From assembly GCA_020975725.1 (NCBI GenBank), contig QXJR01000019.1, forward strand, positions 62,001-126,000: a DNA stretch of 64,000 nt, written 5' to 3'. The notes below the pieces were generated by a model. The model was not told the DNA's origin. It worked only from the letters and a program-made list of their open reading frames with translations, and did no database searches. Position 1 is the stretch's first letter. Every line of letters starts with the position of its first letter. Made by a program: the position numbers and the translations under genes. The DNA is from Picocystis sp. L7. Its lineage: Eukaryota; Chlorophyta; Picocystophyceae; Picocystales; Picocystaceae. This document shows, one piece after another, positions 6,305-61,000 of this stretch.

Positions 6305-6380
6305 TGCTCATCCAGAATAAATTACACAACAGGAAAAAAAATACCCAAGATCACCCACCAAGGCACTCGTGTTTGGGCGA

Positions 6381-34346: not shown

Positions 34347-36815
34347 CTACTCGTACAAGGCAGACATCAACTTTGCAAGCAACTTCCTACAACCGGCCTT
34401 GGTTGTTGTCGGCGTTGCCATCAAATACACCACATTTCCCAATGGCCGAGCAAAAATGCCCTGGGAACGGAGGCTCTTGACGATGCTGGCCGAGGCTGTA
34501 GATCCATACCCTGCATCTCTGGCATTCATCTCCACCGCAAAAACGGTACCCAGTGGAAGGACTCTTCGTACTTTCGGATCCAGAGAGATCTCTGTCGCCA
34601 TAGCTTCATCCCAAAGGTCTGTAAGCTTGGATTTTCCTACATTTTCAGTAGCCCCCTCAAGTCCCTCGGATCTTTCATGCCCAGGGTAATTAGGATTGGA
34701 GGTTTTGTCGCAGTAAATATCCAATGCTGCTACTGACACTTGGCAACCAATTGGATGCGCTGTGTAGGAGTGGCCGTGCAGAAGGGCCTCCATTTTTGAG
34801 GGCCCCTCAAATGCTTTAAATACTTCTTCTCTGGCCAATGTTACTGACAAGGGCAACATCCCACCGGTCAGTAGTTTAGCATAGCAACCTATGTCAGGCG
34901 CTTCACCCAACAACTCTGCCGCACTCTCTGATCCTAGGCGCCATATCCCCGAGAATACTTCATCGAAAATCACTGGGATGCCCCTGTGTCTGCACTCCTG
35001 CACTACGAGTCTTTGCCAAAGCGGGTCAATGAGATTCATGCCCCCTGCACCTTGCAAGACTGCCTCCATGATGCAAGCCCCAAGTTGAATGCCTCCTTCG
35101 CTTGCACTGTCCAATGCTTCTTGTATGCTTTCAAGATAGAACTGAGCCAATCCGTTTTTGCCACGCTCCTCGGCAAAAACCTCCTCCTTTGACGAAAGCA
35201 ATAGTTCGTCGCCAAGGAGCCCTCTTGGGAGCTTTTGCTGCAGTTCCTCACTCAACATCACTTTCCACTGCCCATCGCAAATAGCTGCGTGTGGAGGGTC
35301 CAAGAAAAAACCTTGTGCTCGATACCAGGGCGTCTGCATTTCGCCGTTGAATACTGAGGGAGGGCTACACTGCATTGCCCCTAGGGTGTCACCATGGTAG
35401 GAGTTTTGCAACCCAATCACGTGCAGCTTCAACGGCTCTGCATTTTCGTCGCGATCTAGCAGGTTGGCATCAACGGCAAACTTTCGAAGCGCCATCTTGA
35501 GACCCACTTCTACGGCAGTGGATCCGTCGTCCGAGAAGAATACCCTCGATGCCCAGTTGCGTCCCACTCCACGAAGCAAACGTTCCGAAAGTTCCAAAGC
35601 CGGTGCATGTACTGTTTCAGGAAAGATTACATGGCCGTACCTTCCGGCAGCTTGCGCAATATTACGTACAAGTGTGGTGCTTTGTGTCGCGGAGACACCC
35701 TGGGTCCACCAACTAGCAACACCATCAAAGGCAGCCTGGAACTCACTAGCACCACTGCCTGAGGATGATGCGCCCTTGAAAAGCATCAATTGCTCTCCAC
35801 ATCTACCATCAATGACCGTTGTACCTAGTCCCACAGACTTGTGCTGCGTAAAAGGCCACCAAAACACGTTCCTTGCCCGTTCGGCCATACTCTCGAGATC
35901 TGAGAAGCGATCGGCTGCACGCCTAATCAAGCTTTGTCTCAGCTCGTCGAATGTTCCAGCTGTCGCCACAATCCAATTGGCCATCTGCTCGTCCATTTCA
36001 GCAACATTGGGGCCCGGCTCTTGTCCTTGAAGGGATTGGGTGATGCGCCACACTTCGGTCCTTGCATCCACGTGCTTCTGGATGGCCCGCTCGTTGCCAA
36101 GCTCTCCGCCCATCATCACGATTGCATCCACATCATAGCCTCTCAGGAGGAGAGTTTCGTACGCCGAGATTGTGGAAGAAATTCCACCTAGCCTAGGGTC
36201 TCCCACCAGCACGACCGGCAGACGGAAGGGCCTGAGCAAGTCGCACTGCAGCGTGCCGGACGGTCCAGGACTTGCAGGCCCTCCCGCACCTTCCACAACT
36301 ACCATGGCTTTCTTCATGCTTTCATCCGACAGTGAAGACGCGAAGGTTCTTAACTCGCGAGCAATGCGAGACACCAGGCGATTGTCCGACACGTGCCTTC
36401 CTTCCTTCTGGCAGGCCAAGTCTGGGCTTGCTGGCAACTCCCATGCATAGAGCACACCGCACCGGCGCGGAGGTTCCTCGCTTTGTGCGCTTCCTTTTCC
36501 GTTCCACGTTTCGTTCCAGGATCCTCCACCACTTGTCCTGTTCCTAGGATCGTATCCGTTGCGATGGAGGTGTGCTTTCCACAGCTCTGCTGCATGTGGT
36601 CCGTGTTCCACTTCCAAGCATTGTCCAGCCCTGGCCACACACCTAGCATCGCTGTCTCTTGGGAAGCCTGTTTGCAGTGGCTTCAAGTACATCCATCCAG
36701 CCTGTGCACGTGCTGCAGCAGCTGCCAATCCTGCACTGATTGCAGTCTTTCCCACACCAGTGTTGGCTCCCAACACGGCGAAGCTGGCCAGTTGTGCGGG
36801 GAAACGCACGGCCAT
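34347..36815 (-). CDS. BIO3-BIO1: Bifunctional dethiobiotin synthetase / DAPA aminotransferase
   Basis: One 822-residue reading frame joins two biotin enzymes. BioD comes first: P-loop GANTGVGKT (16-24), YLKPLQTG and VVEGAGGPASP. BioA follows from about residue 315: FWWPFTQHKSV, FFSDDGSTAVEVGLKMA, NSYHGDTLGAMQCSP, VIFDEVFSGIWRLG, the PLP-lysine region CYAKLLTGG and LHGHSYTAHPIGC. It converts KAPA to DAPA and then dethiobiotin, steps 2 and 3 from pimeloyl precursors. The fusion order and gene structure match plant and fungal BIO3-BIO1, which is mitochondrial in plants. The N terminus is short and only weakly presequence-like. GTTAAC lies about 171 bp upstream. It is convergent with glucosidase I (132 bp). 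Confidence 0.95.
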   Translation of the reverse strand: MAVRFPAQLASFAVLGANTGVGKTAISAGLAAAAARAQAGWMYLKPLQTGFPRDSDARCVARAGQCLEVEHGPHAAELWKAHLHRNGYDPRNRTSGGGSWNETWNGKGSAQSEEPPRRCGVLYAWELPASPDLACQKEGRHVSDNRLVSRIARELRTFASSLSDESMKKAMVVVEGAGGPASPGPSGTLQCDLLRPFRLPVVLVGDPRLGGISSTISAYETLLLRGYDVDAIVMMGGELGNERAIQKHVDARTEVWRITQSLQGQEPGPNVAEMDEQMANWIVATAGTFDELRQSLIRRAADRFSDLESMAERARNVFWWPFTQHKSVGLGTTVIDGRCGEQLMLFKGASSSGSGASEFQAAFDGVASWWTQGVSATQSTTLVRNIAQAAGRYGHVIFPETVHAPALELSERLLRGVGRNWASRVFFSDDGSTAVEVGLKMALRKFAVDANLLDRDENAEPLKLHVIGLQNSYHGDTLGAMQCSPPSVFNGEMQTPWYRAQGFFLDPPHAAICDGQWKVMLSEELQQKLPRGLLGDELLLSSKEEVFAEERGKNGLAQFYLESIQEALDSASEGGIQLGACIMEAVLQGAGGMNLIDPLWQRLVVQECRHRGIPVIFDEVFSGIWRLGSESAAELLGEAPDIGCYAKLLTGGMLPLSVTLAREEVFKAFEGPSKMEALLHGHSYTAHPIGCQVSVAALDIYCDKTSNPNYPGHERSEGLEGATENVGKSKLTDLWDEAMATEISLDPKVRRVLPLGTVFAVEMNARDAGYGSTASASIVKSLRSQGIFARPLGNVVYLMATPTTTKAGCRKLLAKLMSALYE

Positions 36816-38716: not shown

Positions 38717-40133
38717 TGACTTGCCTGGATTGGAATACTTCATAGACTCGTTTGCCTTGCTAAGGTAGTGATGGCTCTTGGAAACGCGCAACCACTTGCC
38801 GCACAGCTTTCGTCGAGCTTGGGGCTAGTCTGCAAGTCTCTGTTGGTGTGGCACGATAAGCCTGCCCAAGCATCCTGCACTGTTTTTCACTCATTGTTCA
38901 CATTATATTCTCACGCACAAGGGCATGCCAATTCCTGATCTTGAACCTTCAACCTCATGGTTGGCTCTTCATGTGCCTGGTGGCACCTTGCATCAATGAG
39001 GGAGCGAGGATCTGTTCCCGGTTGTCTTCCCATGTTTGAGGTAGCCGTAGGTTCTTTCCAAAGCGATGGGCCAAGGACGGCATGCATGCTCGCATGCGTC
39101 TTTTTTCCGGAGGACTGCAGCCGATTGTACGGGTGGATTTGGATCGATGGTTTCACGCAGGCCATGCAGGAAAGGTGGCAGGAAGAAGACACCAGTGCGG
39201 TTGTGGTTGGGAATGCAATGCACAGGTCATGACGGGGATTTCTTTCTGCCTCCAAGGTCATCCTTTCCGCTCACACCTTGAGCCGATGTGCCTCGGGTCA
39301 CATTCCCGACACTGCTCCGTCACGCAGCACTTGGGGACCGGGCATGGCATCCATGCCTATGCTTTTCGGGAACATGGGTGTCACCTTGGGTGTCCTTTGA
39401 TCTGTGCTTGAATCATGGAACATTGAATCGCGCTTCATGCACCATCCATTCTGCACCCAATTCGTTGATTTCAAGATGGCATGGACGTGGACCCCACCAT
39501 GTGTCTCCAGGGATTCCTTCCCTGAACACGTGTGGTACGTTTTCGTCCGTACCTCCCCCCTCGTTCGAAGATCTCGCCACGTCACCCGAGGATGGGTGGT
39601 GGAGATCGCTCGTGGGGATATTTCGACCCCCCCGATCGCCCCAGCTGCGATCCGATTGGTCCACGGGATTCGTCGACCGTCGAGGATCGACGTGGAGCTT
39701 CCACGTGTCCGACCCACCCGTGGATCGAAATTCGACGGTCCATGCGGTCTTTTCACGGTCCACACACGGTCCACCGCTGTTCCCCGGATCTCGGGGGACC
39801 GGCCAGGAACGTCCACGTCATGTCCTTCTCATTCCCTCCCCTTTTCTGCATCCCCGCCTGCTCTCATCCGGAAGAATTCAGAACCCACCCTCCCTCACTT
39901 AACCCGAACCGAGTTAACCCCCCAGTCCCCGGGCGCCCTCCCCCCGCCTCCCCAAACGGACCCCCTTCCTCTCCTCCATCCCCTCCGGGGGGTCCCGATC
40001 CCATCCCTTCCTTGGGTGCCGGGCACGGTTCCCCCCTCCACCGAGGGGGGGGGGGTTTGCTTCGTGCTTCTTGGTTTCGTTTCATTGTGAAGGTCTCGCA
40101 CTTTCGTGCTGCGCTCGCTCTGGAGGCGCATCG
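38717..40133. other. Intergenic upstream of the REC-SPA gene
   Basis: No supported gene in 1.4 kb. The right end is a typical promoter of this genome: C-rich, with GTTAAC at 39913-39918 and an 11-G run near 40045-40055. Open frames here are overlapping shadows. Confidence 0.5.
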
Positions 40134-42659
40134 ATGGCGTCTGCGCCCACACCCTCGGAGATCCACGTCCTGCTGGTGGACGACGAAGGGATCTCGAGGA
40201 CCACGGTGGCCAGAGTGCTGCGGAACTGCGCCTATCGGGTCACCGAAGTGAGCGACGGGCTGGAAGCCATGCACGTGTTGAAAGAAAGCTTGCATGGAAG
40301 GGAACAGGACAGGTTCCACCTGCTGCTGACCGACGTCATGATGCCCGAAGTGGACGGAATCGCGCTGCTGAGGTTCGTCCGAGCCCACGAAGCGTTGAGG
40401 AACCTGCCGGTGGTGATGATGTCGGCACACGAACAGGCCGACACCGTGTTCGAATGCATACGTGGTGGAGCGGAAGATTACCTGCTGAAACCCATCAAGA
40501 AGAAAGAAGTGCAACACATATGGCAACACGTCTGGAGGAGGAAAACGCAAGCGCAGACCGTGCCCAGCCTGCACGAAGACGGAAACGCAGAGAACGACGC
40601 CAGGCACCTGCTCATGAGCGTGCCGCAACAAACGCACCAGAACGCGAACGCCAACGGCGGGAGCCCGAACGCGTCCGAGAGGAGAACGGCGGCGGATCCC
40701 ACGCCCAGCATGGTAGACAGGAAAGAAAAGCGAAAACCAGCGCGAAAAGATACCCTGAAAGAGTACCTGCAACGCCCAGGGAGACAGGCACGAGCGTTGG
40801 AGTGCCTCCACGTGTTCCAGAAGCTCGTGATTGAAGTGGCGGAGCGTCACAAAAAGGGGACCATCTTGGGCGCGGCAAGCATCGCCGCAGCGAAGCTCCA
40901 ACCCAACGGCGCTGTTCGCGTACCCATCTCGGAGGACCATGAGCGCAACGGCGACGGGATCAAGGGCATGGAAGTGTACGCTGCTCCGGAGACCTTGGTG
41001 AAAGGCCTTGCTTCCAAGGAGAGCGATATATTTGTCTTGGGGATGGTCCTGTTTGAACTGTTCCATCCTTTTGACGAGGATGCGGATCGCTTGCCGATGC
41101 TGGCAGCGGTCAAGGAGGGAGTTTTCCCCAGAAAGTTTCTGGAGTTGTTTCCCAAGATCGTCGAGCTGTGCGCGTGGATGACCCGTCCTATAATGCAGGA
41201 GAGGCCCACGGTCCAGGACTTGATGGAGTGCGAGGCGCTTCGGGAGGCACGTACAGGGCTGGAAGAGATCATGCAGGATGACCAGGCAAGCTTGCAAGGC
41301 GCGAGCGATGTGCAAGCTAGACTTTTTCTGCGGTCTGTTTGGCTGCAGCAGCAAGCATATGCGTGCAAGGTTGAAGAAGAAGTACAGAGCTTAGAAGAAG
41401 ACATTGCCACAATCAAGGCTTCGTTGCAAGCCAGTGATAAGAAATCACTATCCCATGTACAAAAAAGGCAAAAGAAGGGGGACGCAAACATCCACGAGCA
41501 CCCTGTGCCCCCATCTTTGAATAAGGTCAAAGACTGTTTTGAGGAACTTGATCACTTTTGGTTTGATCGCAGGAACCCGTTGGAGCATGAACCCATCAGT
41601 GAACCAGGGAAGGCAGAGATGTTTAGAGACATCTCGATGGAAATGTCGAAGTTTGTGACACACAACCGAATGGAATGCAAAGCCACTTTGAAACAGGCCG
41701 ATCTGTTGAACAACATGGAGATGATTTGTTCCATGTGTTTCGATAGAGATGATGAGTTTTTTGCGGCCACAGGTGTCTGCAAGAAGATCAAGATCTACGA
41801 GTATAAGTCAGTTGTTGCAGATGGTATGGAGGGACATCTCCCCGTTGCGGACATTGCTTGCAGTTCCAAACTGAACTCTTTGGCATGGAGTTCGTACATC
41901 AAATCTCACATTGCAAGCGCAGACTGTGCTGGTACTGTATGCCTGTGGGATACCTGCACACTGTCTCCGGTCATAGAGTTCCATGAGCACACATCGAGGG
42001 CATGGAGTGTGGACTTGTCTCCTTCAGACCCAACACGCCTACTGTCTGGATCAGACGATGGATCCATTCGGCTGTGGTCCATGTGTCAGCAGCGAAGTGT
42101 GGGTAAGGTTGATTGCAACACCAACATATGCAGCGTCCAGTTTTGTCCTACAGATTCAAACCTGTTTGCTGCAGGAACTACAGATCACAAGGCGTACCTG
42201 TATGATGCAAGGAAGCTTTCCGCTCCACTGGCAGTGCTGGGTGGGCACAAAAACAGCATTGCATACGTCCGGTTTCTTGGCTCGGACTCACTGGTTACAT
42301 CATCGACAGACAACACGTTGAAGCTTTGGGACTTGAAGAGTGCCTGCGCCGATGGTGGCAGCGCAGAAGCTGTTCAGACTTACCGCGGCCACATGAACGA
42401 GAAGAATTTTGTTGGGCTCTCTGTTCACCCTGAGGGATTCATAGCAAGTGGAAGCGAGGACAACACTGTTGTAGCGTACCACCAGAACTTCACCTCTCCC
42501 ATGGTTTCTCACAAGTTTCACGGCATGAACCCCCTGACTGGCAGGGAAGAACTTGATGACCGTGGGCAGTTTGTTAGTAGTCTTGCATTCCAGCGTTCGG
42601 GGAATGTTCTACTGGCTGCAAATTCCTCAGGGATCATCAAAGTTCTGGAGTTTGCCTGA
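40134..42659 (+). CDS. Response-regulator receiver fused to SPA-like pseudokinase, coiled coil and WD40 propeller
   Basis: The 841-residue protein has four parts. Residues 9-135 are a receiver domain with acidic pair D16/D17, phospho-acceptor D67 (LLLTDVMMPEVDG), S97 and K119 (DYLLKPIKKKEV), ending in IWQHVWRR as in plant clock PRRs. Residues 205-370 match the C-terminal part of the SPA kinase-like domain (TLKEYLQRPGRQARALECLHVF, ESDIFVLGMVLFELF, RPTVQDLMECEALR); the N-lobe Lys and HRD motif are absent. Residues 395-450 are a coiled coil. Residues 525-841 are a COP1/SPA-type propeller (FHEHTSRAWSVDLS, LLSGSDDGSIRLW, AAGTTDHKAYLYDAR). SPA proteins work with COP1 in light-controlled ubiquitination. 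The single open frame argues for a true fusion; the ATG at 40134 directly precedes the receiver. Confidence 0.93.
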   Translation: MASAPTPSEIHVLLVDDEGISRTTVARVLRNCAYRVTEVSDGLEAMHVLKESLHGREQDRFHLLLTDVMMPEVDGIALLRFVRAHEALRNLPVVMMSAHEQADTVFECIRGGAEDYLLKPIKKKEVQHIWQHVWRRKTQAQTVPSLHEDGNAENDARHLLMSVPQQTHQNANANGGSPNASERRTAADPTPSMVDRKEKRKPARKDTLKEYLQRPGRQARALECLHVFQKLVIEVAERHKKGTILGAASIAAAKLQPNGAVRVPISEDHERNGDGIKGMEVYAAPETLVKGLASKESDIFVLGMVLFELFHPFDEDADRLPMLAAVKEGVFPRKFLELFPKIVELCAWMTRPIMQERPTVQDLMECEALREARTGLEEIMQDDQASLQGASDVQARLFLRSVWLQQQAYACKVEEEVQSLEEDIATIKASLQASDKKSLSHVQKRQKKGDANIHEHPVPPSLNKVKDCFEELDHFWFDRRNPLEHEPISEPGKAEMFRDISMEMSKFVTHNRMECKATLKQADLLNNMEMICSMCFDRDDEFFAATGVCKKIKIYEYKSVVADGMEGHLPVADIACSSKLNSLAWSSYIKSHIASADCAGTVCLWDTCTLSPVIEFHEHTSRAWSVDLSPSDPTRLLSGSDDGSIRLWSMCQQRSVGKVDCNTNICSVQFCPTDSNLFAAGTTDHKAYLYDARKLSAPLAVLGGHKNSIAYVRFLGSDSLVTSSTDNTLKLWDLKSACADGGSAEAVQTYRGHMNEKNFVGLSVHPEGFIASGSEDNTVVAYHQNFTSPMVSHKFHGMNPLTGREELDDRGQFVSSLAFQRSGNVLLAANSSGIIKVLEFA

Positions 42660-42847: not shown

Positions 42848-43975
42848 TTAGGCAAAACTTTCCTGCATGATGTGCAGGGCAAGTAAATCTGCCAGCGCAG
42901 TGTCGCCTCCTCCGTCGATGAGCGCTTCAATATCTACCTTCCTTCCTGTCGACTGCATAGCCATCACTTCTTTTTTCCACCCAGGACGCGAATCCAAGCA
43001 TCCAGAGCGAAGCATGCTGCCTACCAAATTCCTATCCTTTGCAGTGAGTGGTTGTCCAAAGCATTCAAGTTCTTCTGTCTGTATGTGCTCGCGTCGCACT
43101 CCCAGCCAGAGCAATTCTGGTATGGAATAGCGGCTGGCTTCGAGCATGGTAGTGCGATGCAATCCACCTTGAGCGTAGGTGTGTAGGATGATCACTCCAC
43201 TTGGATTCCAATCCACCACTGCGGCCACTGGTAATGCGGCTTCCACGTGCAGCTTTCGTAAGAACGACCTCGATGCTAGGTCCGGCATGCCTTTGGCGGT
43301 CAGGACGATCACGGGCACCTTTTGGTGGATTCTTTCGCGATAAAGCCGATGCAAAACTGCTTCTTTCTCCACAACCAGCACCAGCTGTGCATCGGTTTGA
43401 AGGTGCCATGCCTCCACTTGACGCACATCTCCTGGAATGGGCACCACGCAGTTCCTGCAGTCTATCCAACCATCATCTCCGCTGCTGCTGCCACCGTTCC
43501 CAGTTCCTGCATCGTTGGCACGAACATGCAAGTTTCCGAAGAACTCACCTTTGCTTGCGGCCACCACGCCCAAGCATGGCCTAGGCACCTGCAAGAGTCC
43601 CACGACCACTTGCACGGCGGCCGATACGCCTTCGTAGGTGCGTGCAGATCGAGGAAAGCTCGCCTTGGCACGATAGTACAAGCCACGCAGCGTGCACGTT
43701 TCTTCTTTGACACAAAGACTGGCCAATACCGTCAGAACGCTCCACACCTGCACGTAATTCGCACGTTGTTTTCGACTGCCGTAGCGGATCTCCACGTGCG
43801 CAAGTCCTCCGTGCACGTCGCACGATTTGATGTAGACGAGAGGAGGGGGTTCTTTTCCTTCCAGGACGGCTTCGGACGCCATTTGCGCAGCTTTGGCGAT
43901 GCGCCACGCCACTTCTTGCTGCGAGACCGTCTCCAACACTTCCACCAGGCAGGCTTCTGGATCCCAGCCTTCCAT
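42848..43975 (-). CDS. SPO11: SPO11-like topoisomerase VI A subunit (meiotic double-strand breaks)
   Basis: From the ATG at 43975 the product is 375 residues. The winged-helix segment carries the catalytic-tyrosine region TLRGLYYRAKASFP. The Toprim part carries LVLVVEKEAVLHRLY, IVLTAKGMPDLASRSFLRKL and AAVVDWNPSGVIILHTYAQG (the D-x-N-P-x-G metal motif). Spo11 cuts DNA to start meiotic recombination. A single gene does not tell SPO11-1 from SPO11-2, but the sequence does not look like the SPO11-3/topo VI paralogue. The frame is open upstream to about 44146 without an ATG; only a GTG (44026) was found. Upstream lies an 11-bp triple repeat and, in another frame, an ATG at 44201, so the N terminus is uncertain. 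Confidence 0.85.
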   Translation of the reverse strand: MEGWDPEACLVEVLETVSQQEVAWRIAKAAQMASEAVLEGKEPPPLVYIKSCDVHGGLAHVEIRYGSRKQRANYVQVWSVLTVLASLCVKEETCTLRGLYYRAKASFPRSARTYEGVSAAVQVVVGLLQVPRPCLGVVAASKGEFFGNLHVRANDAGTGNGGSSSGDDGWIDCRNCVVPIPGDVRQVEAWHLQTDAQLVLVVEKEAVLHRLYRERIHQKVPVIVLTAKGMPDLASRSFLRKLHVEAALPVAAVVDWNPSGVIILHTYAQGGLHRTTMLEASRYSIPELLWLGVRREHIQTEELECFGQPLTAKDRNLVGSMLRSGCLDSRPGWKKEVMAMQSTGRKVDIEALIDGGGDTALADLLALHIMQESFA

Positions 43976-44607
43976 GATCGCGCGACCTGCTTGGTTCACG
44001 CCTTCCGGGTCCGAATCCACCAGCACCTGGTGTGCGTCCCAAACCTGCTTCCGGACGGATCCGAGTGGGTGCCGCGCCGCGTCCTTCGCCTCGTCCGACG
44101 GCGTAACAATGGCGTGCTTTGCTCGTGCTTTGCTCGTGCTTTGCTACAGCCCCCCCGCTGCTGCGTGCCACAGGGGCGGTAGATCGGGGGGCAGGTCCCA
44201 TCTCCCGGGTAGGCATGGAGCGGTGGAAAGGTGAAGACGGTGCATGGAAAAGGAGCCGAGACCCATCCATCCCATGGGAAGAGCAGAGGGGACAACCGGG
44301 GACAGGAGTGGACACCGAGGGAGGGAATCCTACTAATGCATGGAGAGAGGATGCTTCGCACCACCTAGGAAACAGGTGAAAGGAAGTGTGCAGGAAAAAA
44401 GAGAGAGGTTCAAACGGCCATGGATCACCCCGCCTCAAAGCAGGATCCATCGAATATATTTTCTAAGCAGAAGATGTGTGCCGTGCATAGGCGTGCTTCA
44501 TCGCTCCAAGTCCTTCAAGACCAAGCAAAGTGCATCCTTGCTCTGCGCAAAGATGAAGTCAAGCATACATGCCACAGGGGTTCGAGAACGAAACATAAAC
44601 AACCCAG
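43976..44607. other. Spacer between SPO11 start and VIP1 end
   Basis: This 632-bp stretch holds the SPO11 promoter and N-terminal uncertainty zone, the 11-bp triple repeat and the VIP1 3' flank. No separate gene is supported. Confidence 0.5.
44113..44145 (+). repeat. Three perfect copies of an 11-bp unit
   Basis: CGTGCTTTGCT is repeated three times in tandem. On the SPO11 strand it reads AGCAAAGCACG, containing the CAAAGCACG motif seen in other promoters. Eleven is not a multiple of three, so copy-number change would alter any frame passing through. Confidence 0.9.
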
Positions 44608-47600
44608 CTATGGAGACAATGGGCATGCGCTGACGTTCCTGGACACGCTGCCCTTGCTCCGGTCCTTCGAATTCTGGATGTGAGGGCGTAAGAGCTGTTC
44701 CAACAACTCAATGGTCAGTGTTCCTTCCACCTCCGTGTTCAGGTGCAGTGGAATGCAAGGCCTGATTGGCAAGCAGTGATTGCGGTTCAACGGAACGACT
44801 TCAAGTGGGTTGTACGATGCTCCAGGGCTAAAGAGCACTTCGATGTAAAAACGCTTCGGATCTTCCAGCGAAACGTCCTTCCTCTCAAACAAACGAAACA
44901 CGATCTGTGTCAAGTAGTCCAGTTCGTTGATCAATGCCAGCTCGCGCCTGGCATCCTTAGACACAGGCTGGGCTTCTCCATCCTCTCCCACACAAAAATC
45001 ACAATAGATGAGCATATTCAAGAGCGAATGCACATGGCTCTCGCTTGTGAAGTACAAACGCGTCTTTACTCTTCTTTCAGGCGTGTTGATCTCCGATGCA
45101 AACCGAGGATCTAAACGGGTCCTCATACCATCATCGACCTCGTGGTCATCTAGCTCCTCGTCACCTTCATTGCGAGACTCTTTTTTGCCAACTGTATCTT
45201 GCGACGGATTGGAGGACTCGTCCCCCTCCGCCATGCTAAAACCTGCTGCAGTGAAACTCTCCTCCCTGGTATTGCTGAGATCAGTCAAGAGTTTGTTGAG
45301 TAGACTCGAGCATATGTTGCTGCCAATGGCCATTTTGCCGGACACTCCAACACCATATTCGTTAGGAATGACAAGGTCAGCGGCTGCTTTGCTGACCGTG
45401 TAGATCTCTTCCATTCCTTGCAAGTCTAAATCTCCATTGTGAATTGCATCGTATTTGATCATATCGTAGATGTCTGCTATCTTGGAAATGTTGAAGACGT
45501 TCTTCCTGGTGTGGTAAAAGTCAGATTGCAATTTTTTCCATCGATCATACATGAGCATATACCCTTCGTTGTTACACGGGCCTTCTGTGCTGTGCTGCAC
45601 AACACCTGTCATTGTTCCCCGCACCCAATCTTGGAAATGACCATCAGCGCCTTCAGTCATTGCTTCGTGTTCAAACTTCTTTTCCAGCTGCTTCACGAGA
45701 GTTGCTATGTGTCCCTTCAGCATCTGAAGCAATTCAACTGGACGTTCTGGCATGTCATGCATACCTCCTGCAAGCATCTCCTGGCTCTCCGAAAACTGGA
45801 GTGTGGACTTATCTTTTTCTAAGCGTTGGCCATCCCAAGTGTCATTCCCAAATCCTGTGGGAATGCAACTGGTCATTCTAGGCGAATCATCTTCATCGAG
45901 TCCTTCTGTGTATAAGTCCACCCTCATTGCTGGTGGTGGGCAATCTGGTATAGTTGTGTTCTCTCTTGCTGCAGCATCGTGCAGCGATGAGGAAGACAAC
46001 AGCACACAGTTTTCTTCATTTGTCATCGCATCGTGAATGCACTCTTTAGCATGTTGAATATACTCAGAAGCTCCTTTCCCAAAGGCATCGAGCATGGGAG
46101 TGTCTTTCTTAACCATAGCTGCAATGATGGGGGCGAGCGATGCCCCCTCTAAATCCAAAAGTCCCTTGCAGAACGCAGCGGCTGACATCTGGACACGGCC
46201 TTCATCAGAGGAGTAAATCTTCAAATCATGCCGGTACGTGCTGTGTAGTCTTAGGAGACCCCTTCCCTCCTCATAACCATCGCTAGGATACATATTTATT
46301 CGAAAGTCCTTCCCCAGGTTTTCTGCTTGCTCCCTGCCAGCATGAGTCAACACCCCGCCCCACTTCAGAATCAAAAGAGAAAGCGTCACCTTCTCCTGCC
46401 CATCGACAACAGATGTCTGCAACGGTTTGAATTGCGCCTTTCTGTTAACCCCGCTAAACCTACCCCCTACCCCCCCTGTGGTAGAGCGCTCTAGCACTGC
46501 TTTGATCACGCTGAACTTGTTCAACGTTTCCAGCTTTTCTTCCACATACTCCTGCTCATCTTCTGAGGTCGAAGAATCGAGGTACTTGTGTATGGGAGGG
46601 GTGCCAACAAAACCACTGTACTCAGCCCGCGATAGAATTTCTGACACTGCCTCGAGAAGTTCTTCCAACTGGTTGGGAGTTTTCAATTTCGCTTGCTTCC
46701 CTTTGGAGTCCATGTACTTCATTTGCAATTCCAAGAGTTCTGGTTGACTTACCTTCACTTTCAACTTTTGTTTGGGAGTGCGGTCACCGTGTCGAATCAC
46801 TGCAAGGACACAACGGAGCTCGTCTGCAGAGGATCCATCCACCTCCTGATCTTGCAGGCTAAGGGCGCTTGCTGATCGTGTCAATGACAATGCTTCGTCG
46901 TAGTCCCCTGATCTGCCTGAAGGTACATTGTGCAATTGCCTCCTCAATCTTGACGGAGAAAGCTCTGAGAGTATGAGGGTGCGCAGCAAGTCAGACGTGT
47001 CATCGTAATACTTTTTGCTATTTTTCACAAAACTCCAACCATTGACGTCACACACATACGACTTTTCCTGACACCTAAGGAGGTCGAAGCCGCAGACTGC
47101 TTGTCCAAAAGCGATGGATATCTTCCTTGCAATTTCTTTCTCCTCCGGAGTCAGCAGCACTGGATATCGTAGCTCCTTCCCGTCACTCGATCTCTGGACT
47201 CGACCATCAACAGTGGGAGACTTTCTGGCTTCTGCATGTGCATAACCAGACCCCACTGTGTAAACCTTGACATCAGTGCCCCCAGTAGGAAGAAAGGCTT
47301 CGTATATGTATGATTTGTCCCTTCTTACGTGGTTGATATCCGGGGAAAAGTCAGCGCTTCGGTCGGCTCTCTTACGAAACAGGCGTTTGCACCCCCCGCC
47401 CATGCTGTATGGGTAGTAAATGTAGATGTTGTGGTCATCCCCATCCACTGGTTTTTCTACGAATGGTTTCACAATTTTCTCTCCATCAACCATCACAAAA
47501 TCTTCTTCCTCATTGAATTCGTTGAGGTCCACTCCATCCTTGGTGCGGTTCATGATGACGTGCGGTGCTACATCAATGTTGCACGCTTGAAGCAAGGCAT

Positions 47601-48054
47601 AGACCTTCCTCCTGTCGTGCAAGATGTGCTGCGAGGGTAGGTCGTTGATCAAGAACGGTTTCCTCAGCTTGACGTACGCTTCAGCTTTTTCCAGAGGGAA
47701 TCCTTCCGAATGAAAGGCCACGAGGGCATTGCAGATGGGCCACTCCTCCACCGGTTTGTGCAGCAGCGTCTCGTCTCCGAAGTACACCACTTCGAAGTCG
47801 TTCCACGAGTTCATGCGTTGTATGATGGATTCCATGGGTTTTGACCTAGCTTTCTTGTCCATGGCACAGATGCCAAGCACGATAGGTTCACCGTCGTCGG
47901 TCCAGTCTTGTGATCCTGATCTTGTTTTCCTCGGAGGTACGCCTGGTGCGCGCATGTGGAACGGGATGCCTCTCGCACGGGATTGCATGCGATGCAAGGC
48001 TGCATTTTGGAACCTCAGTGCCGCCACGCGTCGGTTCTCGTCCTTCGAGCCCAT
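44608..48054 (-). CDS. VIP1: Inositol hexakisphosphate/diphosphoinositol-pentakisphosphate kinase (VIP1/PPIP5K)
   Basis: The 1148-residue protein matches yeast Vip1 in length and layout. The ATP-grasp kinase (about 55-380) shows IVLGICAMDKKARSKPM, NDFEVVYFGDE, HSEGFPLEKAEAY, HDRRKVYALL, FVEKPVDGDDHNIYIYY, VGSGYAHAEARKSP and CDVNGWSFVKN. The histidine-acid-phosphatase-like domain follows, with RHGDRTPKQKLK (about 417) and the late SESHVHSLL motif. The kinase adds the 1-phosphate to InsP6 or 5-InsP7, making inositol pyrophosphates that signal phosphate status; the second domain removes it. The C terminus ends soon after the phosphatase core. The upstream region carries two CAAAGCACG and two AGTTAAG motifs between 48242 and 48283. 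Confidence 0.96.
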   Translation of the reverse strand: MGSKDENRRVAALRFQNAALHRMQSRARGIPFHMRAPGVPPRKTRSGSQDWTDDGEPIVLGICAMDKKARSKPMESIIQRMNSWNDFEVVYFGDETLLHKPVEEWPICNALVAFHSEGFPLEKAEAYVKLRKPFLINDLPSQHILHDRRKVYALLQACNIDVAPHVIMNRTKDGVDLNEFNEEEDFVMVDGEKIVKPFVEKPVDGDDHNIYIYYPYSMGGGCKRLFRKRADRSADFSPDINHVRRDKSYIYEAFLPTGGTDVKVYTVGSGYAHAEARKSPTVDGRVQRSSDGKELRYPVLLTPEEKEIARKISIAFGQAVCGFDLLRCQEKSYVCDVNGWSFVKNSKKYYDDTSDLLRTLILSELSPSRLRRQLHNVPSGRSGDYDEALSLTRSASALSLQDQEVDGSSADELRCVLAVIRHGDRTPKQKLKVKVSQPELLELQMKYMDSKGKQAKLKTPNQLEELLEAVSEILSRAEYSGFVGTPPIHKYLDSSTSEDEQEYVEEKLETLNKFSVIKAVLERSTTGGVGGRFSGVNRKAQFKPLQTSVVDGQEKVTLSLLILKWGGVLTHAGREQAENLGKDFRINMYPSDGYEEGRGLLRLHSTYRHDLKIYSSDEGRVQMSAAAFCKGLLDLEGASLAPIIAAMVKKDTPMLDAFGKGASEYIQHAKECIHDAMTNEENCVLLSSSSLHDAAARENTTIPDCPPPAMRVDLYTEGLDEDDSPRMTSCIPTGFGNDTWDGQRLEKDKSTLQFSESQEMLAGGMHDMPERPVELLQMLKGHIATLVKQLEKKFEHEAMTEGADGHFQDWVRGTMTGVVQHSTEGPCNNEGYMLMYDRWKKLQSDFYHTRKNVFNISKIADIYDMIKYDAIHNGDLDLQGMEEIYTVSKAAADLVIPNEYGVGVSGKMAIGSNICSSLLNKLLTDLSNTREESFTAAGFSMAEGDESSNPSQDTVGKKESRNEGDEELDDHEVDDGMRTRLDPRFASEINTPERRVKTRLYFTSESHVHSLLNMLIYCDFCVGEDGEAQPVSKDARRELALINELDYLTQIVFRLFERKDVSLEDPKRFYIEVLFSPGASYNPLEVVPLNRNHCLPIRPCIPLHLNTEVEGTLTIELLEQLLRPHIQNSKDRSKGSVSRNVSACPLSP

Positions 48055-53884: not shown

Positions 53885-56290
53885 TCACTTTTTTTTGGCA
53901 GCTGCACGCTGCCCAGTAGTTGTGGTGCGAGGTTGGTTGCCGCTGTGCTCAAGTCGAAATAAACCCTCGTGTGTAAATGGATCGATTGAAATCTTGAACT
54001 GTACCTTTTCTCGAGATTCCAATCGATTTAGCTGCCTCCTGTGCAGCCGTAAGTACTTGCCAAGCATCCCCCCTGTAATCAACTTCAGTATTGGTCTATT
54101 GGCGTTCGAGTGTCCGGCTCCTTCCGTTTCGTTCGATGCGGATATCTTCCATCTCTTCACCTCCCTCTCGATGGCCTGCAACGCGGCCAGTGGGGTCTGA
54201 ACGTACCGAGACCCCGCACAGCTTGGACACTTGCATGTCATGTTGTGGTACGCACTCAGATGAGGCATCCGTCTTGCTCGCGTGAGTTCAAGCAGCCCGA
54301 AGTCACTGATATTGCCGATGTTGTAGTCGGCACCATCTAGAGCCGCCCATTTCATTACCTCATCCTCTACCTGCTTCCTACAGATTTTTTTCTTCATGTC
54401 AATGAAGTCAATCACAACGATGCCACCTATGTCCCTGAGACGAAGTTCTTGGCAGATCTTGCCTGCAGCGGCAATGTTTACGCCCAAAACAGCCTCGTCA
54501 GACTTCAAATCTTGGTTGAAAACTGCACGGCCACCATTCACGTCAATCGTAGTGAGTGCATCTGTGACCTGTAGAATGATGTTTCCCCCACCTTCAAGGG
54601 GGAGGCATTCTGCAGTGAATGATACAAACTCTGTCTCCTCGCCAATGCCATACTCGTCGAACAAGAGGGCATCCTTTTTCTTGAAATGATGTACCCGACT
54701 GGAAAGTTCCTTGTATCCTGCTGTTTGGAGTCCACTCTTGAGAGCCATAAATTCGGCCTTGGAATTGACCACCAGCTCCTCTACCTTTCTTCCAAACATG
54801 TCTTTCACAATGGTCTCTATCAGGCTTGCTCCCTTCAGCAACCGCTTTGGTTTTACTGCATGCTTTCTACTCTTGCACCTGGAGCGTACCTTTTGCAGGA
54901 CCATGGTCCAGCTTGTGTACAGTGACTTGATATCGTCCATAAGTTCCTCCTCGGAGCGACCTTCTGCCTCGGTTCTCACGATGACCCCGCAGTTCGGTGG
55001 TTGACATTCTGAAGCAATGTACGACAGTCGGCTACGTTCCAGTCCCTTTATTTTTCTGGACACACCAACACGCAATGTCTCCGGAGTCAAAACTGTCAGT
55101 TTCCCGGACAAGGAGATCGTGCCGGTGACCTTGTGTCCCTTCCGTCCAGAAGGCATACGCGTCACTTGAACAACGACAGCATCTCCGGGCACAAAGAGGT
55201 CCCCAATATCTTGGCTTGCAGAGAGCGACATTGTGTCATCGTATTCTGCGATATCTTCCTCTATCTCTTCGGATAGTCCATCCTCTAGGCTTTCCTCGAT
55301 ATTGACCTCTGACCCGCTCAAGACTTCTTCCGAGAAGGACATGGTATACACTCCCCCCTCGTCCTCGCTGTCTTCGGCCTCCTCCTCCTCTTCATCTTCT
55401 GTCTCCTCTTCTGCTGAGTCCTCTTCATTGCACTGGAGCTGCGGTTCAGTCGACACTATTTTCATCGTCTTTTTGGCCTTGTGCAGCCCAACGTCCATGA
55501 GTGCAAACTTCTCTGTTCCGATATCCACGAGGTAGGCTTTCATCACTGGCACGTAGCTCTTGATCACTCCGAGCAGCACATCTCCCACCGCTACAGAATC
55601 CTGATCTTCGCGTTCTGTGAGGAGTTGCACCAGCTTTCCTTCTTCCATCACAGCACACCTGGTTTGCCACGTCCCGCAGTCCACCAGCAGCGTCCTCCTG
55701 ACTTCTTGGTTTTCCTTGGCGTCTTCTTCTTCTCCTGCCTGCTTTTCTGCCTGTCCATGCGAGGGCGCATCGGTTCCATTTGATTTCTGTGTCGTTCTGT
55801 GTTTGGTTGTGCCGTTTCTGGACGTCTGTGCATCATTGGGCTGTTGGCCGTGTGCCTGCTGTTCCCGTTCGTGGTGTGGATCCCACAAGGGCACGGTTCT
55901 TCTGCTCCAGGGTTCCCACACGTCCACGACTTGCAGCATGGCCTCCTCCATGCTTGCACATTCCTCTTCATGGGTTTGCATCTGTGTTTGTCCCACTTCT
56001 TGTTCCATGGCCAGCACCAGATCGTTCCCTGGTTGCCACTGCACCACTTGTCCCCGTTCTCCACGTTCGGCCAGGAGCACGTATTTGTATTCCATCCTCC
56101 CCATCCTGGGCAGTTCCACCTTCCCAGACCACACGTCTCCTTTCTCACGCACCATGGCGATGGCGCGCCTGGGATCCCATGCGCCCAGGCGCTCGTGGTT
56201 TCCCAGCAGCGCCACGTGGGTGTTGGGCGGCGGCCGGAGGGGGAGGAGGAAGCGCACGTGGACGTCCCCCGGCGGAGGGGCGGGCGTCAT
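53885..56290 (-). CDS. RNE: RNase E/G-type endoribonuclease with N-terminal starch-binding domain (RNE)
   Basis: The 801-residue protein begins with a CBM20 module (about 5-95; HVRFLLPLRPPPNTHVALLGNHERLGAWDP and EYKYVLL). The RNase E fold starts at about 195 with an S1-like RNA-binding insert (GVIKSYVPVMKAYLVDIG). Acidic, low-complexity sequence interrupts S1 (about 285-360). The DNase-I-like catalytic part holds both metal aspartates (TTIDVNGGR and IVVIDFIDM), ARRMPHLSAYH, and a CKCPSC Zn-link motif near 735. Plant RNE has the same CBM20 plus RNase E layout and processes plastid transcripts. The first ATG is at 56290, almost at the CBM20, with an in-frame stop upstream; no transit peptide is visible. 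A TTG three codons earlier is unlikely as a start. Confidence 0.92.
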   Translation of the reverse strand: MTPAPPPGDVHVRFLLPLRPPPNTHVALLGNHERLGAWDPRRAIAMVREKGDVWSGKVELPRMGRMEYKYVLLAERGERGQVVQWQPGNDLVLAMEQEVGQTQMQTHEEECASMEEAMLQVVDVWEPWSRRTVPLWDPHHEREQQAHGQQPNDAQTSRNGTTKHRTTQKSNGTDAPSHGQAEKQAGEEEDAKENQEVRRTLLVDCGTWQTRCAVMEEGKLVQLLTEREDQDSVAVGDVLLGVIKSYVPVMKAYLVDIGTEKFALMDVGLHKAKKTMKIVSTEPQLQCNEEDSAEEETEDEEEEEAEDSEDEGGVYTMSFSEEVLSGSEVNIEESLEDGLSEEIEEDIAEYDDTMSLSASQDIGDLFVPGDAVVVQVTRMPSGRKGHKVTGTISLSGKLTVLTPETLRVGVSRKIKGLERSRLSYIASECQPPNCGVIVRTEAEGRSEEELMDDIKSLYTSWTMVLQKVRSRCKSRKHAVKPKRLLKGASLIETIVKDMFGRKVEELVVNSKAEFMALKSGLQTAGYKELSSRVHHFKKKDALLFDEYGIGEETEFVSFTAECLPLEGGGNIILQVTDALTTIDVNGGRAVFNQDLKSDEAVLGVNIAAAGKICQELRLRDIGGIVVIDFIDMKKKICRKQVEDEVMKWAALDGADYNIGNISDFGLLELTRARRMPHLSAYHNMTCKCPSCAGSRYVQTPLAALQAIEREVKRWKISASNETEGAGHSNANRPILKLITGGMLGKYLRLHRRQLNRLESREKVQFKISIDPFTHEGLFRLEHSGNQPRTTTTGQRAAAKKK

Positions 56291-58006
56291 GGGGACCAAT
56301 GGGGGATGGACACGTGGTGGGGATGGGGGTCACGTGGGAGGAGGGGGGAGGCCTTCCCCGCTTGCCACGTGGCGATGGTCGGACACGTGCCGAATGGTGG
56401 CGGACACCCAAGGCGATGGCTGGACGAACGTGCAGACGAGATGAAGAAACAACCGAAAGGAACCAGGACGATCGAGGAAATCCGAACGGGTTCGATCGGG
56501 GAACCATCGGACGTTTTCGACGGGTTCAGAAGGAGGAGGAACACCGGGGAAGGACGTCCCCCAGGAACGCCATGGACAGGACAAGGACCACCCACGTGCA
56601 AGGACCAAGGACGCCGCTCAGTGCCTCGCAGTGCCGTGGACAAAGCCAAGGGAAGGAAAAGACAAGCAGAACGCGGTGGATCGGAGGAAAGGGAAATAGA
56701 ACAAGTGGAGATCTCCACCGATCCAGTCGAACACAAGAAGCCACCACCCCGATGCGCGAGAAAAGGCACCACGCAACAAGGGCCGCAACACATCGGCATC
56801 ATAGCAACCGCCAGGCACGATGTACGATTGCGAAAAGCTCCGCACGCAGTATCGACGTACGAAATCTCGTGTGAACGCAGAAGGAGAACCGTGACGTGGT
56901 CAACTTCAACAAACGGCCTTCATCCCCGGCTCTCCTCGACGCAATTCAATAGACTTTCTTCCCCCATGTCAATCGGTTCGGCTCAATACCACAGTGTAGA
57001 AGAACGCAAAGTTTTATTCGTTCACAAGTACAATCGACATGCGTTGCATATGCATACCAAACCCTTCAATTTTGACCCGAAAAAACTCCCGCTTTTTTTG
57101 TGGATGAAAACCTGGGTTGAGACAACAAGAGAAGGGGGTGGGACAACCCGATCTTCTAAAGGCATTCGAATTGGAGCACCGACGGGCACGAGAACGATAT
57201 CCAAGGGTATTTGTACGTTCGTCCGGAGCAAATCTTCCGTCCTTTGGTTTGGAAAGGATGAAGACTATCCTTGCTCGTGTTTGTAACATTCTGGGCATGC
57301 CATCCCCTCTTTTCGAAATGTGCGCTTTGTTGAACGAACTTGCACCAGAATGTAACCAAAGCACTTTGTCTACAATTTTTGCCACAAGTACAAGTTACGA
57401 CGTTGTACACACCATGGGCCAATGATTTCAAGGGATCTACGCGCACCCTAGTGCCGTCGGAATGTTTTCCACACGAAACCGGGTTGGGCTTTGTTGCGGG
57501 GGGGAGGGGGGGCTCGCCACGCGTGTTTCAAGAACTTCGCCAGAGATTTTAGTCGCCGCGTGAGGTGATGGAACCGCACTCCACTCCGAGGAGAGAAGGG
57601 GAATCAGCACCCATCCATTGAACCCTCGATCCACGTACGACCGTCCCATCCACGGCCCTACACACTTCCATCTGCACTCTCCTTGCACGTCCCCGAGACC
57701 TCCATCGGCTCCTTCCTTCTCCTTCGTAGACCGTCCATGGACCGTCGGTCTTTTCGGTCTTTTCACGGTCCTTGGATCCGGTCTCGACGTTCCCCTCGTG
57801 TTTACGAACGAGTTAAGTCCATCGACACGACCGTCGCGCATCCATTGCGACGCTTCTTCGCGACGCGCGTGCGTCGCGATCGTCGCACGCCTTCGAAACC
57901 GAGCGGTGTCGGCGTTGGAACAACAGGATATTCTCGTTGGATCCCTTCTCTTTCGCGCGGAAGGAACGCCTGTGCGTCCCTGGGACAAGGGAGAGGCGTG
58001 GTGTCC
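56291..58006. other. Divergent intergenic region, RNE and HERC-like gene
   Basis: No supported gene in 1.7 kb. The stretch carries AGTTAAG at 57811-57817 and G-rich tracts around 57497-57512. An upstream RNE exon encoding a transit peptide could lie here but could not be identified. Confidence 0.45.
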
Positions 58007-61000
58007 ATGGCTCCTGGGAACACGTGGTCCTGCGGATTGGACGAAGACGGCGAGCTTGGACATGACACGAGCCGAACACGCGACAAAAAAGGCACAATGG
58101 CGTGTCCCAAGCCCAGAAAAGTGAGGATGGGAGACCTGGAGTTCCAACAGCTGCGTGCTGGACACGCTCACGTCGTGGGTGTAGAAAGACACACCGGTAG
58201 AGCCAGGGTGTTCGGACAAGGATTGCCTGCAAACATGGGCGTGATGCTGGATGTGGACGTGCCGATCCAACAAGTGAGCTGTGGTTATGCGCATGCAGCT
58301 CTTATCGGCAAAGACGCCCTGGCCAGGGCCTTCGGATCGGATGAATTTGGACAATGCGCGACCGATGGCAAAGACCATGCCCTAGGACCGGAAGCGATTG
58401 ATGGCGATGCCAAACTCATGCATGCCAAGGTCATGAATGGCATGGAACACGTGAGAGCCTCTCAAGTGGCCTGCGGGCACTTTCACACGCTGGTCGCGAC
58501 CGCAGACGGCACTGTGCTGGCCTGCGGACAAGATGTGAGGACGGGTGGCCAGGGGCAGGATTCCATGCAGGGAATCTGTAGGGTGGAAGGCCTATGGGGG
58601 ATCTATCCCATCTGCATCGCCGCAGGAGAAGGATTCAGCGCCGCAATCAGCAGCCAAGGGGATCTCTTCACATGGGGTCGCAACCGACACGGTCAACTGG
58701 GGCATGGGGAAGGCACCTCTCAAGGATCTTCCCAGATATCGCCGTCACAGGAAACCTCTCAAGGATCCGAATCAAGGCCGTCGTTACCCCAAACGATGCA
58801 AACTGACCCAAATGCTTTGGGTGGACTGGAGCATGGCGTTGTTCATCGTGCCAAAGGCAGGGTCAACCAGAGGATGTTGGAGACCATGCTGGAGATGGGG
58901 ATCGAGAAGGCCAGTGCCGAGGAGGCACTTGAACAGACCGGATCCTTGGGCGTGGAGATGGCACTAGAATGGCTTTATGCTGGAGAAAGAAGTGGCAGAA
59001 CCGCTGTGGAGGAAGCGGCGTCCAGGAGCAACCGTTCGATTGTGCCCTTTTCACAAGTGGCATCACCACAGCAAGGTAGCTCTCCCCTGGACCACGTACC
59101 TAGACTGGTTTTTGGGGCAAGACGTGCGACATGGGTGCAATGTGGCGGGTCTCACACAGCTTTCCTCACAGATGAGGGCAGGGCCTTCACGTTCGGGCTT
59201 GGGAGGCATGGGCAGCTGGGCCATGGGATCACTGCAAACGTATTTTCTCCACGTGAGGTGGCCTTGCTGAGCAACCACTTCGTTGTTGATGTGGCATGTG
59301 GCATGCACCATACCGTGTTTTTGACATCAGAAAAGAGAATATTTACGTGCGGTAGTGGTGAGTTTGGGCAACTTGCACATGAAGATATGCAAGACAAGCT
59401 CATTCCTGTTGAAGTTTGTACCTCTCACTTTCAAAAGGATGGAGAAGACGACGTTGTTGCCATCTCGGCTGTTGCTGCTGGCAGTTACTGCACCTTTTTC
59501 CTGTCTGGAGAAGACCAACGGAGTAACGGTATAGAGATTGACCGCAACGCTGTGCTTGAAGGCGTCCATCAGGCAGTGCGTCTTTGGCAAGCTTCGCAAG
59601 GTACCAGAGGGAAGTTGGAGCTAGAAGCGAGCATTGATTTTTTGTTTGGATCTGCTGCCAGTCTCATGAAAGTTTTTGGAAATTTTGGTTCCTATGACAT
59701 CGATGCAGAAGTGTTGAATTCTTGCTACAAGGGTTTGCTGGCAACGCTGGATGAGAATGTGGTTGGGTGTCTCCAGAAGAGCACAACGAGGCTCTGCAGG
59801 GAGATGGAGTTGCATCAGATCCTTCTCAATTCTCCAGAGCGTGCCGGCATACTGTTTTGCTTGATGCTGAATCCTCTAGTGGCCGAACCAAAGTTGATGT
59901 TCTTACCACGGATATGTAGAATTGTTTCCAGCATCAGTAGAGCTACTAAGGCAGCATTGGTTTACCTTTGGTCACATAGCTGTCCTGCGGATATTTTGGC
60001 AACAAGAATAGTTCGACCTCTCCGTCGATACATCACAGCTTGCCTTGAGAGCGATCCAAGGGCAGGTGAAGAAGTGATACGGGCCATTAGCGTGCTTGGC
60101 ATTGTCGAAGAGGCCAACCAAAGCAGAGCATTAGATTCAGATAGTAGTAACCTGCGGGCCCTTCCTGTAGAAGAATTTTACAATGATTTGATAAGCGAGC
60201 GGTTTGATGCTTTTCAGGATTATGTTCATTGGCGTCGAGGGCAAGAACTTACAGCTACCACCAGGGGTGGTGCGAGTGTACCGTTCACGTTCTGTGCCTA
60301 CCCTTTCCTTCTTGATAGCGCAGCAAAAAGCCGTGTGCTGCATGCGGAAGCCCACATTCAGCAGCAACAGAGTGTCCATCAAGCAAGGATTGAGCAGGTA
60401 TTCGGAGCGCTCGTGGGTATGCAGCGTGCACCTGGATCTGTTGCATCTCTCCAACAAAAGAGCACCCGTCAACAAAGTGGCACCTCCTCTTCACGCACAC
60501 GGACAGAGCCGCAGCGTCCTGCCGACCGGGGTTTCTTTGAGTCCCTCCGAGGCATTTGGGGCCCTTCAGTTCAAGCCCAACCAATGGAGGTCGATGAACC
60601 TGAATCAGCAGATCAGGAACAAGAAGATGCAAGCGAGCGACTGGATCGAACACAATCCATTGAACACCCCCAACCGCATCTGTGTGGTGTGCCAGGAGAG
60701 CATCCAGATCTATGCATACTCCGAGTGCGGCGTGATCACTTGGTAGAAGATGCGTTGGATGAGCTGGCAAGGCAGCATCCCAACGATCTCTTCAAGCCCT
60801 TAAGGGTGCACTTCATTGGAGAGGAAGGTGTAGATGCAGGAGGTGTCCGCAAAGAATTTTTCCAACTCGTGCTGCAAGTTTTGTTTCGTACGGAATACGA
60901 TCTGTTCACGTTTTACCCTGAGAGTCGGATGTTCTGGTTTAATCCAGCATCCCTTGAGTCGAAGGAGGTGTACATGTTAGTAGGGCTTATCATTGGTATA

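What the first reader, a model, noticed from the sequence alone, without database searches (positions are those of the whole stretch)
40134..42659. Receiver domain fused in one frame to a SPA-type light-signalling protein
In land plants SPA proteins carry a kinase-like domain, coiled coil and WD40 propeller and act with COP1. Here the front of the kinase-like domain is replaced by a complete two-component receiver. That would plug phosphorelay or clock-type input directly into the COP1/SPA ubiquitin machinery in a single protein. I know of no described protein with this architecture, though I cannot search. This is my best candidate for an undescribed system.
Basis: partly seen in the sequence, partly recalled or inferred. 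Interest (0 to 1): 0.92.

Follow-up and report, generated by a model that had tools for sequence, protein, structure and literature searches.

The report
Green-algal SPA protein with receiver domain
A green-alga gene encodes one protein that joins a phosphorylation-controlled switch domain to SPA, a regulator of light-controlled protein destruction; many green algae share this design, so a bacterial-style signalling relay may feed straight into a plant light-signalling system.

Summary
40134-42659 (+) is one 841-codon ORF: receiver, disordered linker, SPA-type kinase-like remnant, coiled coil, COP1/SPA WD40 propeller. It is no freak or bad join: 68 of 318 proteins in hand after three searches, the window's included, pair this receiver with this propeller, from volvocine algae to Cymbomonas. 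The receiver is the best-conserved part and its phosphorylation site is intact in 60 of 60 complete copies. Nothing was "replaced": both land-plant SPA tested also lack the kinase N-lobe. And "REC-WD40" was reported in Mamiellales in 2025 (PMC12704426, passages), though its main text does not mention COP1 or SPA1. What looks new is the identification as SPA in many chlorophytes, and this genome's inventory: LOV histidine kinase, HPt, CUL4, DDB1 and DET1 present, COP1 not detectable. Best reading: a phosphorelay sets SPA's activity as a CUL4-DDB1 adaptor. Phosphotransfer is inferred, not shown.

The parts
40134..42659 (+). whole ORF, 841 aa plus stop: chlorophyte SPA with N-terminal receiver
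40158..40532 (+). receiver (residues about 9-133; Pfam Response_reg 12-128)
   Evidence: Pfam E 3e-23; model pLDDT mostly over 90; best-conserved part of the family
40332..40334 (+). codon of Asp67, the presumed phosphate acceptor; the other site residues are Asp16 and Asp17 (40179-40184), Ser97 (40422-40424) and Lys119 (40488-40490)
   Evidence: columns: intact in 60 of 60 complete receivers; role of each residue recalled
40557..40742 (+). linker, residues 142-203, probably disordered
   Evidence: pLDDT under 50 throughout; 67-68% identity to P0003 and P0004 against 97% in the receiver (residues 134-203)
40743..41228 (+). SPA-type kinase-like remnant, mostly helical C-lobe part, residues about 204-365
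   Evidence: Pkinase 158-259 of 263, E 1.2e-4, below cut-off; homologous to land-plant SPA; model
41232..41453 (+). long helix, presumed coiled coil, residues 367-440
   Evidence: model secondary structure; residues 390-841 align with COP1 255-731
41661..42656 (+). COP1/SPA-type WD40 propeller, residues 510-841

Best explanation
This is the chlorophyte orthologue of SPA, the only COP1/SPA-type propeller detected in its genome; in chlorophytes SPA commonly carries an N-terminal receiver. Shown by sequence: a receiver with an intact phosphorylation site, linker, SPA-type kinase-like remnant, coiled coil and COP1/SPA propeller; the same order in dozens of chlorophyte proteins; and in the same genome an HPt, hybrid histidine kinases (one LOV type, two GAF type), CUL4, DDB1 and DET1. 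Inferred: sensor kinases, one of them blue-light type, phosphorylate the HPt, which passes the phosphate to Asp67; this changes how the receiver packs on, or pairs, the coiled-coil/propeller body, and so raises or lowers SPA's ability to bring light-response transcription factors (CONSTANS/CCT type) to a CUL4-DDB1-DET1 ubiquitin ligase. The sign, activating or inhibiting, is not known.
Against: No phosphotransfer, binding or ubiquitination was measured. The pTM of 0.54 says nothing firm on domain arrangement. The proteins compared were gathered partly with receivers as query, so the count is not a frequency. The TOC1-like REC-CCT and other receivers of the genome (11 receiver matches) compete for the one HPt. 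P0017 and many others give no kinase-like match to the window's, so that part is not conserved in all.
Confidence: 0.6

Rival explanations
1. Constitutive docking module: the receiver is kept as a protein-protein interface, PRR-like, tying SPA to clock proteins or to another SPA, and is not switched by phosphate.
For: The receiver's closest listed land-plant relative is a REC-CCT (PRR-type) protein, and plant PRR receivers are known as pseudo-receivers (recalled; PMC12704426 passages contrast them with O. tauri TOC1). The genome has a REC-CCT gene on C5 whose acceptor site looks degenerate (by eye).
Against: All five catalytic positions are kept in 60 of 60 complete copies, which a pure interface would not need.
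Confidence: 0.2
2. Phosphate sink: the receiver mainly drains phosphate from the shared HPt, tuning TOC1-like and type-B-like regulators, with little effect on SPA's ligase role.
For: Only one HPt match for several receivers.
Against: A sink needs no fixed fusion to SPA, yet the fusion recurs in 68 of 318 proteins in hand.
Confidence: 0.08
3. Assembly or annotation artefact: two neighbouring genes joined.
For: None found in these calls.
Against: Same fusion in independent sources; no stop in the frame and no GC3 seam at the junction.
Confidence: 0.01

Closest known systems
REC-WD40 putative response regulator of Mamiellales (PMC12704426, passages only)
   Same: Receiver followed by WD40 propeller in green algae; authors also list LOV-HK, HPT and CCT proteins in the same genomes.
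   Different: The passages and word counts seen do not link it to SPA, COP1 or ubiquitin; their sequences were not compared with the window's here, and the supplement was not read.
SPA proteins of land plants
   Same: Homologous kinase-like part, coiled coil and propeller; WD40 identity 46-53% for the five compared; kinase N-lobe missing in both land-plant SPA scanned.
   Different: 94 SPA-type proteins gave no receiver match; the window protein has one.
Chlamydomonas SPA1 (Cre13.g602700; PMC6736836, PMC8226298, passages)
   Same: Presumed orthologue; relatives Volvox africanus, Gonium, Pleodorina, Astrephomene and Chlamydomonas eustigma carry receiver plus propeller.
   Different: Its own sequence was not in the lists seen; the passages read mention no receiver. 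It works with COP1 there; here no COP1 was detected.
COP1
   Different: No RING; 41% identity over the WD40.
PRR/TOC1 clock proteins
   Same: Receiver of similar type (44% identity to Paulownia REC-CCT).
   Different: No CCT; propeller instead.

Membership tests
SPA family | COP1/SPA-type C-terminal WD40 propeller | tested here: met
SPA family | SPA-type kinase-like domain before the coiled coil | tested here: met
   residues 196-400 matched 115 of 121 proteins, mostly SPA; Pkinase itself below cut-off
SPA family | coiled coil between kinase-like part and propeller | tested here: met
   model helix 367-440, and alignment of 390-841 with COP1; no coiled-coil program was run
SPA family | physical association with COP1 | not testable with these tools
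   No COP1 detected in the genome: WD40 query finds only this ORF and then matches of at most 59.5 bits; RING plus coiled-coil query at most 31.2 bits
COP1 | N-terminal RING | tested here: not met
   receiver at the N-terminus; the COP1 RING query's 16 matches do not include this place
Two-component response regulators | receiver with Asp-Asp, acceptor Asp, Ser/Thr and Lys | tested here: met
Two-component response regulators | accepts phosphate from an HPt or histidine kinase | not testable with these tools
   only the parts list:
PRR/TOC1 | C-terminal CCT motif | tested here: not met
   7 CCT places in the genome, none on the window's contig C17
REC-WD40 of Mamiellales | same orthologous group by sequence | not tested
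   the paper's sequences were not fetched; several unnamed receiver-WD40 proteins may be these

The most novel reading that the evidence does not exclude
In this alga SPA has taken over from COP1: a RING-less SPA sits on CUL4-DDB1-DET1 as the only COP1/SPA-type substrate receptor, and its ubiquitin output is set by a light-driven His-Asp phosphorelay (LOV histidine kinase to HPt to receiver Asp67). That would be direct two-component control of a cullin ubiquitin ligase through one polypeptide. Two pocket substitutions, COP1 Tyr441 to Cys and Lys550 to Asn, shared by this lineage alone (4 of 67 receiver-SPA proteins), would mark a changed substrate code.
Probability: 0.25. Interest if true: 0.85.

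Novelty: new variant of a known kind. Interest (0 to 1): 0.62.

Why it matters
How light signals reach the COP1/SPA machinery in green algae is still largely open. If the receiver is live, phosphorelay signalling acts directly on ubiquitin-dependent control of photoprotection, and that can be tested in Chlamydomonas, where a spa1 insertion mutant and the CONSTANS target already exist (PMC6736836, passages). It would also mean that the land-plant SPA usually studied is the form without the receiver; whether land plants lost it or chlorophytes gained it is not settled here. An alga with SPA but no detectable COP1 would be a natural test of what SPA does alone.

Tried and rejected
Assembly join: rejected on conservation and composition. 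Unique architecture: rejected (68 of 318 proteins in hand; PMC12704426). Kinase N-lobe replaced by the receiver: rejected. COP1 identity: rejected, no RING. Origin of the receiver (gained in chlorophytes or lost in streptophytes): unresolved. With one COP1 sequence as outgroup the receiver-SPA side has support 33/17 only in the careful tree (a hand-picked 27 of 65 receiver-SPA rows and 12 of 17 others), and the quick tree left two long rows, P0035 and P0055, outside the receiver-SPA clade. Sister group of the receiver: unresolved (few columns, long branches; 8 of 68 short receivers dropped before the tree). The C7 Beta-prop_RSE1 match was first a DDB1 candidate; it is SF3B3; the C19 match is DDB1. 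Fold searches were filled by the propeller, so receiver and kinase-like remnant were not tested against solved structures by fold. The second structure job was not used.

Papers: passages only (find mode) of PMC6736836, PMC8775618, PMC12558739, PMC8024647, PMC9612821, PMC4091655, PMC8226298, PMC4336690, PMC12704426, PMC4343026, PMC5108777, PMC5749748 and PMC4167131; of PMC8209157 passages and section 9. Gabilly et al. 2019 on Chlamydomonas SPA1 is not held, so what it says of SPA1's domains is unknown to me. That a receiver-bearing SPA is not described in print rests on the searches in open-licence PMC papers; subscription papers, preprints and supplements were not searched. Against my reading of the kinase-like part as inactive: PMC8024647 says kinase activity was shown for Arabidopsis SPA1 (passage).

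Full report

IT IS A SPA. The block around 204-392 is homologous to the SPA kinase-like domain: as a query, residues 196-400 matched 115 of the 121 proteins then in hand, itself included. Pfam Pkinase matches only positions 158-259 of 263, below its cut-off. Two land-plant SPA scanned behave alike: P0067 (Arabidopsis arenosa) matches from position 80 and P0023 (Marchantia) from 161; the algal P0122 from 138. P0023 begins its SPA motif at residue 18. So nothing was replaced: a receiver stands before a kinase remnant that lacks its N-lobe in land plants too. By eye, the land-plant rows shown have RPS where a kinase has its catalytic Asp, and the window protein lacks even that; yet kinase activity has been reported for Arabidopsis SPA1 (PMC8024647, passage).

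IT IS NOT ALONE. Three searches of the protein collection gave 536, 394 and 305 matches, of which the best 120 were listed each time; with the window's own that made 318 proteins in hand. 68 of these have both the receiver and the COP1/SPA-type propeller. Named holders include Coccomyxa, Elliptochloris, Myrmecia, Trebouxia, Micractinium, Chlorella variabilis, Parachlorella, Nannochloris, Botryococcus (by its JGI code), Dunaliella, Tetradesmus, Volvox africanus, Gonium, Pleodorina, Astrephomene, Chlamydomonas eustigma and Cymbomonas. Two of the searches used receivers as query, so 68 of 318 is not a frequency in nature. Of 161 proteins with a strong propeller match, 67 had a receiver match and 94, had none; the organism names that I read among the latter are land plants, but I did not classify them one by one. 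Chlamydomonas reinhardtii SPA1 was not in the lists seen; that it has the receiver is inferred from its relatives.

THE RECEIVER IS UNDER THE STRONGEST CONSTRAINT. Among 43 receiver-bearing rows the mean pairwise identity is 63% over the receiver (903 pairs), 49% over WD40 (903), 26% over the kinase-like part (741), 23% and 24% over the two linker regions (745 and 820). Of the 68 proteins, 60 have all five site columns filled and all 60 keep the canonical residues; the other 8 lack part of the N-terminus. On the receiver tree the 60 near-complete receivers lie on one side of a branch (SH-aLRT 84), with 8 short ones dropped beforehand; the tree has few columns and long branches. On the WD40 trees receiver-SPA and the receiver-less SPA rows separate: 98 for the 17 receiver-less rows and 84 for 63 of 65 receiver-SPA rows in the quick tree, 100/98 in the careful tree of 40 chosen rows. 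Whether receiver-SPA are a clade once COP1 is added is not shown (33/17, one COP1 only), so gain in chlorophytes and loss in streptophytes both stay open.

THE REST OF THE GENOME. The assembly has 20.5 Mb in 30 contigs; a plant-type telomere repeat was found in 19 different contigs among the places listed (list cut), at contig ends, at both ends in C3 only. COP1 WD40 as query finds this ORF at 285 bits and then nothing above 59.5 bits (52 matches). COP1 RING plus coiled coil finds 16 matches at E up to 1, the best 31.2 bits; 14 lie within the RING part of the query, one spans 6-89 and one, at 15.8 bits, 102-177. So no COP1 is detectable; loss, divergence or an assembly gap cannot be told apart. 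Present: CUL4, DDB1, DET1, three photolyase/cryptochrome-type matches, seven CCT motifs, one HPt, three HisKA matches over the cut-off and one below, all three in genes with a receiver. One of these kinases carries a PAS domain with the sequence GRNCRFLQG (as a LOV signature recalled) that matches phototropin LOV at 119 bits; the other two have GAF domains. Receivers: 11 matches. Two REC-CCT genes exist: by eye the one on C24 has its acceptor Asp and the one on C5 does not.

SUBSTRATE POCKET. At seven COP1 positions recalled as the VP-peptide pocket (422, 441, 465, 467, 528, 550, 595; the letters found agree with that numbering) the window protein keeps five; Tyr441 is Cys and Lys550 is Asn. 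Cys and Asn there occur in P0001-P0004 and in none of the other 63 receiver-SPA proteins. With the long stem of this lineage (0.83-0.87 changes per column) this may reflect altered substrate choice.

LITERATURE. PMC12704426 (2025; passages) reports REC-WD40 among putative response regulators present in all Mamiellales genomes it surveyed, says that to its knowledge WD40 effectors had not been reported in plant response regulators, and found REC-WD40 and CRY-DASH co-expressed in all three genera. COP1, SPA1 and ubiquitin have zero occurrences in its main text; its supplement was not read. PMC4343026 (passages) sets out LOV-HK to HPT to TOC1 as a hypothesis for Ostreococcus. PMC6736836 (passages) shows SPA1 and COP1 acting on CrCO in Chlamydomonas. 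PMC5749748 (passages) states that COP1 and SPA1 are conserved in the microalgae studied, with one SPA each. PMC8209157 (section 9) tabulates COP1 and SPA as absent from Coccomyxa subellipsoidea and Volvox carteri; other Coccomyxa and Volvox species have the receiver-SPA here.

VERDICT. A real, deeply conserved form of SPA whose receiver is not mentioned in the SPA literature that I could search. The likely role, phosphorelay control of a CUL4-DDB1-type ligase, follows from parts and conservation, not from measurement. The boldest reading not excluded is a COP1-less, phosphorelay-driven ligase in this alga.

Noticed in passing
own genome C24, L046:1710-4238 (-): LOV histidine kinase: PAS/LOV, HisKA, HATPase and receiver in one ORF.
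   Followed up: partly
own genome C25, L045:2644-5442 and 5862-8489 (-): Two neighbouring, very similar GAF-HisKA-HATPase-receiver genes in tandem.
   Followed up: no
own genome C24 (L044:2191-3297 -) and C5 (L014): Two REC-CCT (PRR/TOC1-like) genes; the receiver on C24 keeps its acceptor Asp, that on C5 looks degenerate.
   Followed up: partly
window 40134-42656: GC3 falls sharply inside the SPA gene near residue 392 (0.71-0.79 before, 0.50-0.54 after), not at the receiver junction.
   Followed up: no
window 39864-41354 (-): Long antisense ORF over the 5' part of the SPA gene and its upstream region; probably a mirror of the codon pattern, not tested.
   Followed up: no
window 42848-44026 (-): SPO11/topoisomerase VI subunit A-like ORF, tail to tail with the SPA gene.
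   Followed up: no
window 57737-61765 (+): RCC1-UBA-HECT (HERC-like) ubiquitin ligase ORF.
   Followed up: no
window 53885-56290 (-): Starch-binding CBM20 domain joined to an RNase E/G domain.
   Followed up: no
window 34347-36815 (-): AAA_26 and class-III aminotransferase in one ORF, a BIO3-BIO1-like biotin synthesis fusion (gene name recalled).
   Followed up: no
window 44608-48054 (-): PPIP5K/VIP1-type inositol pyrophosphate kinase-phosphatase ORF.
   Followed up: no
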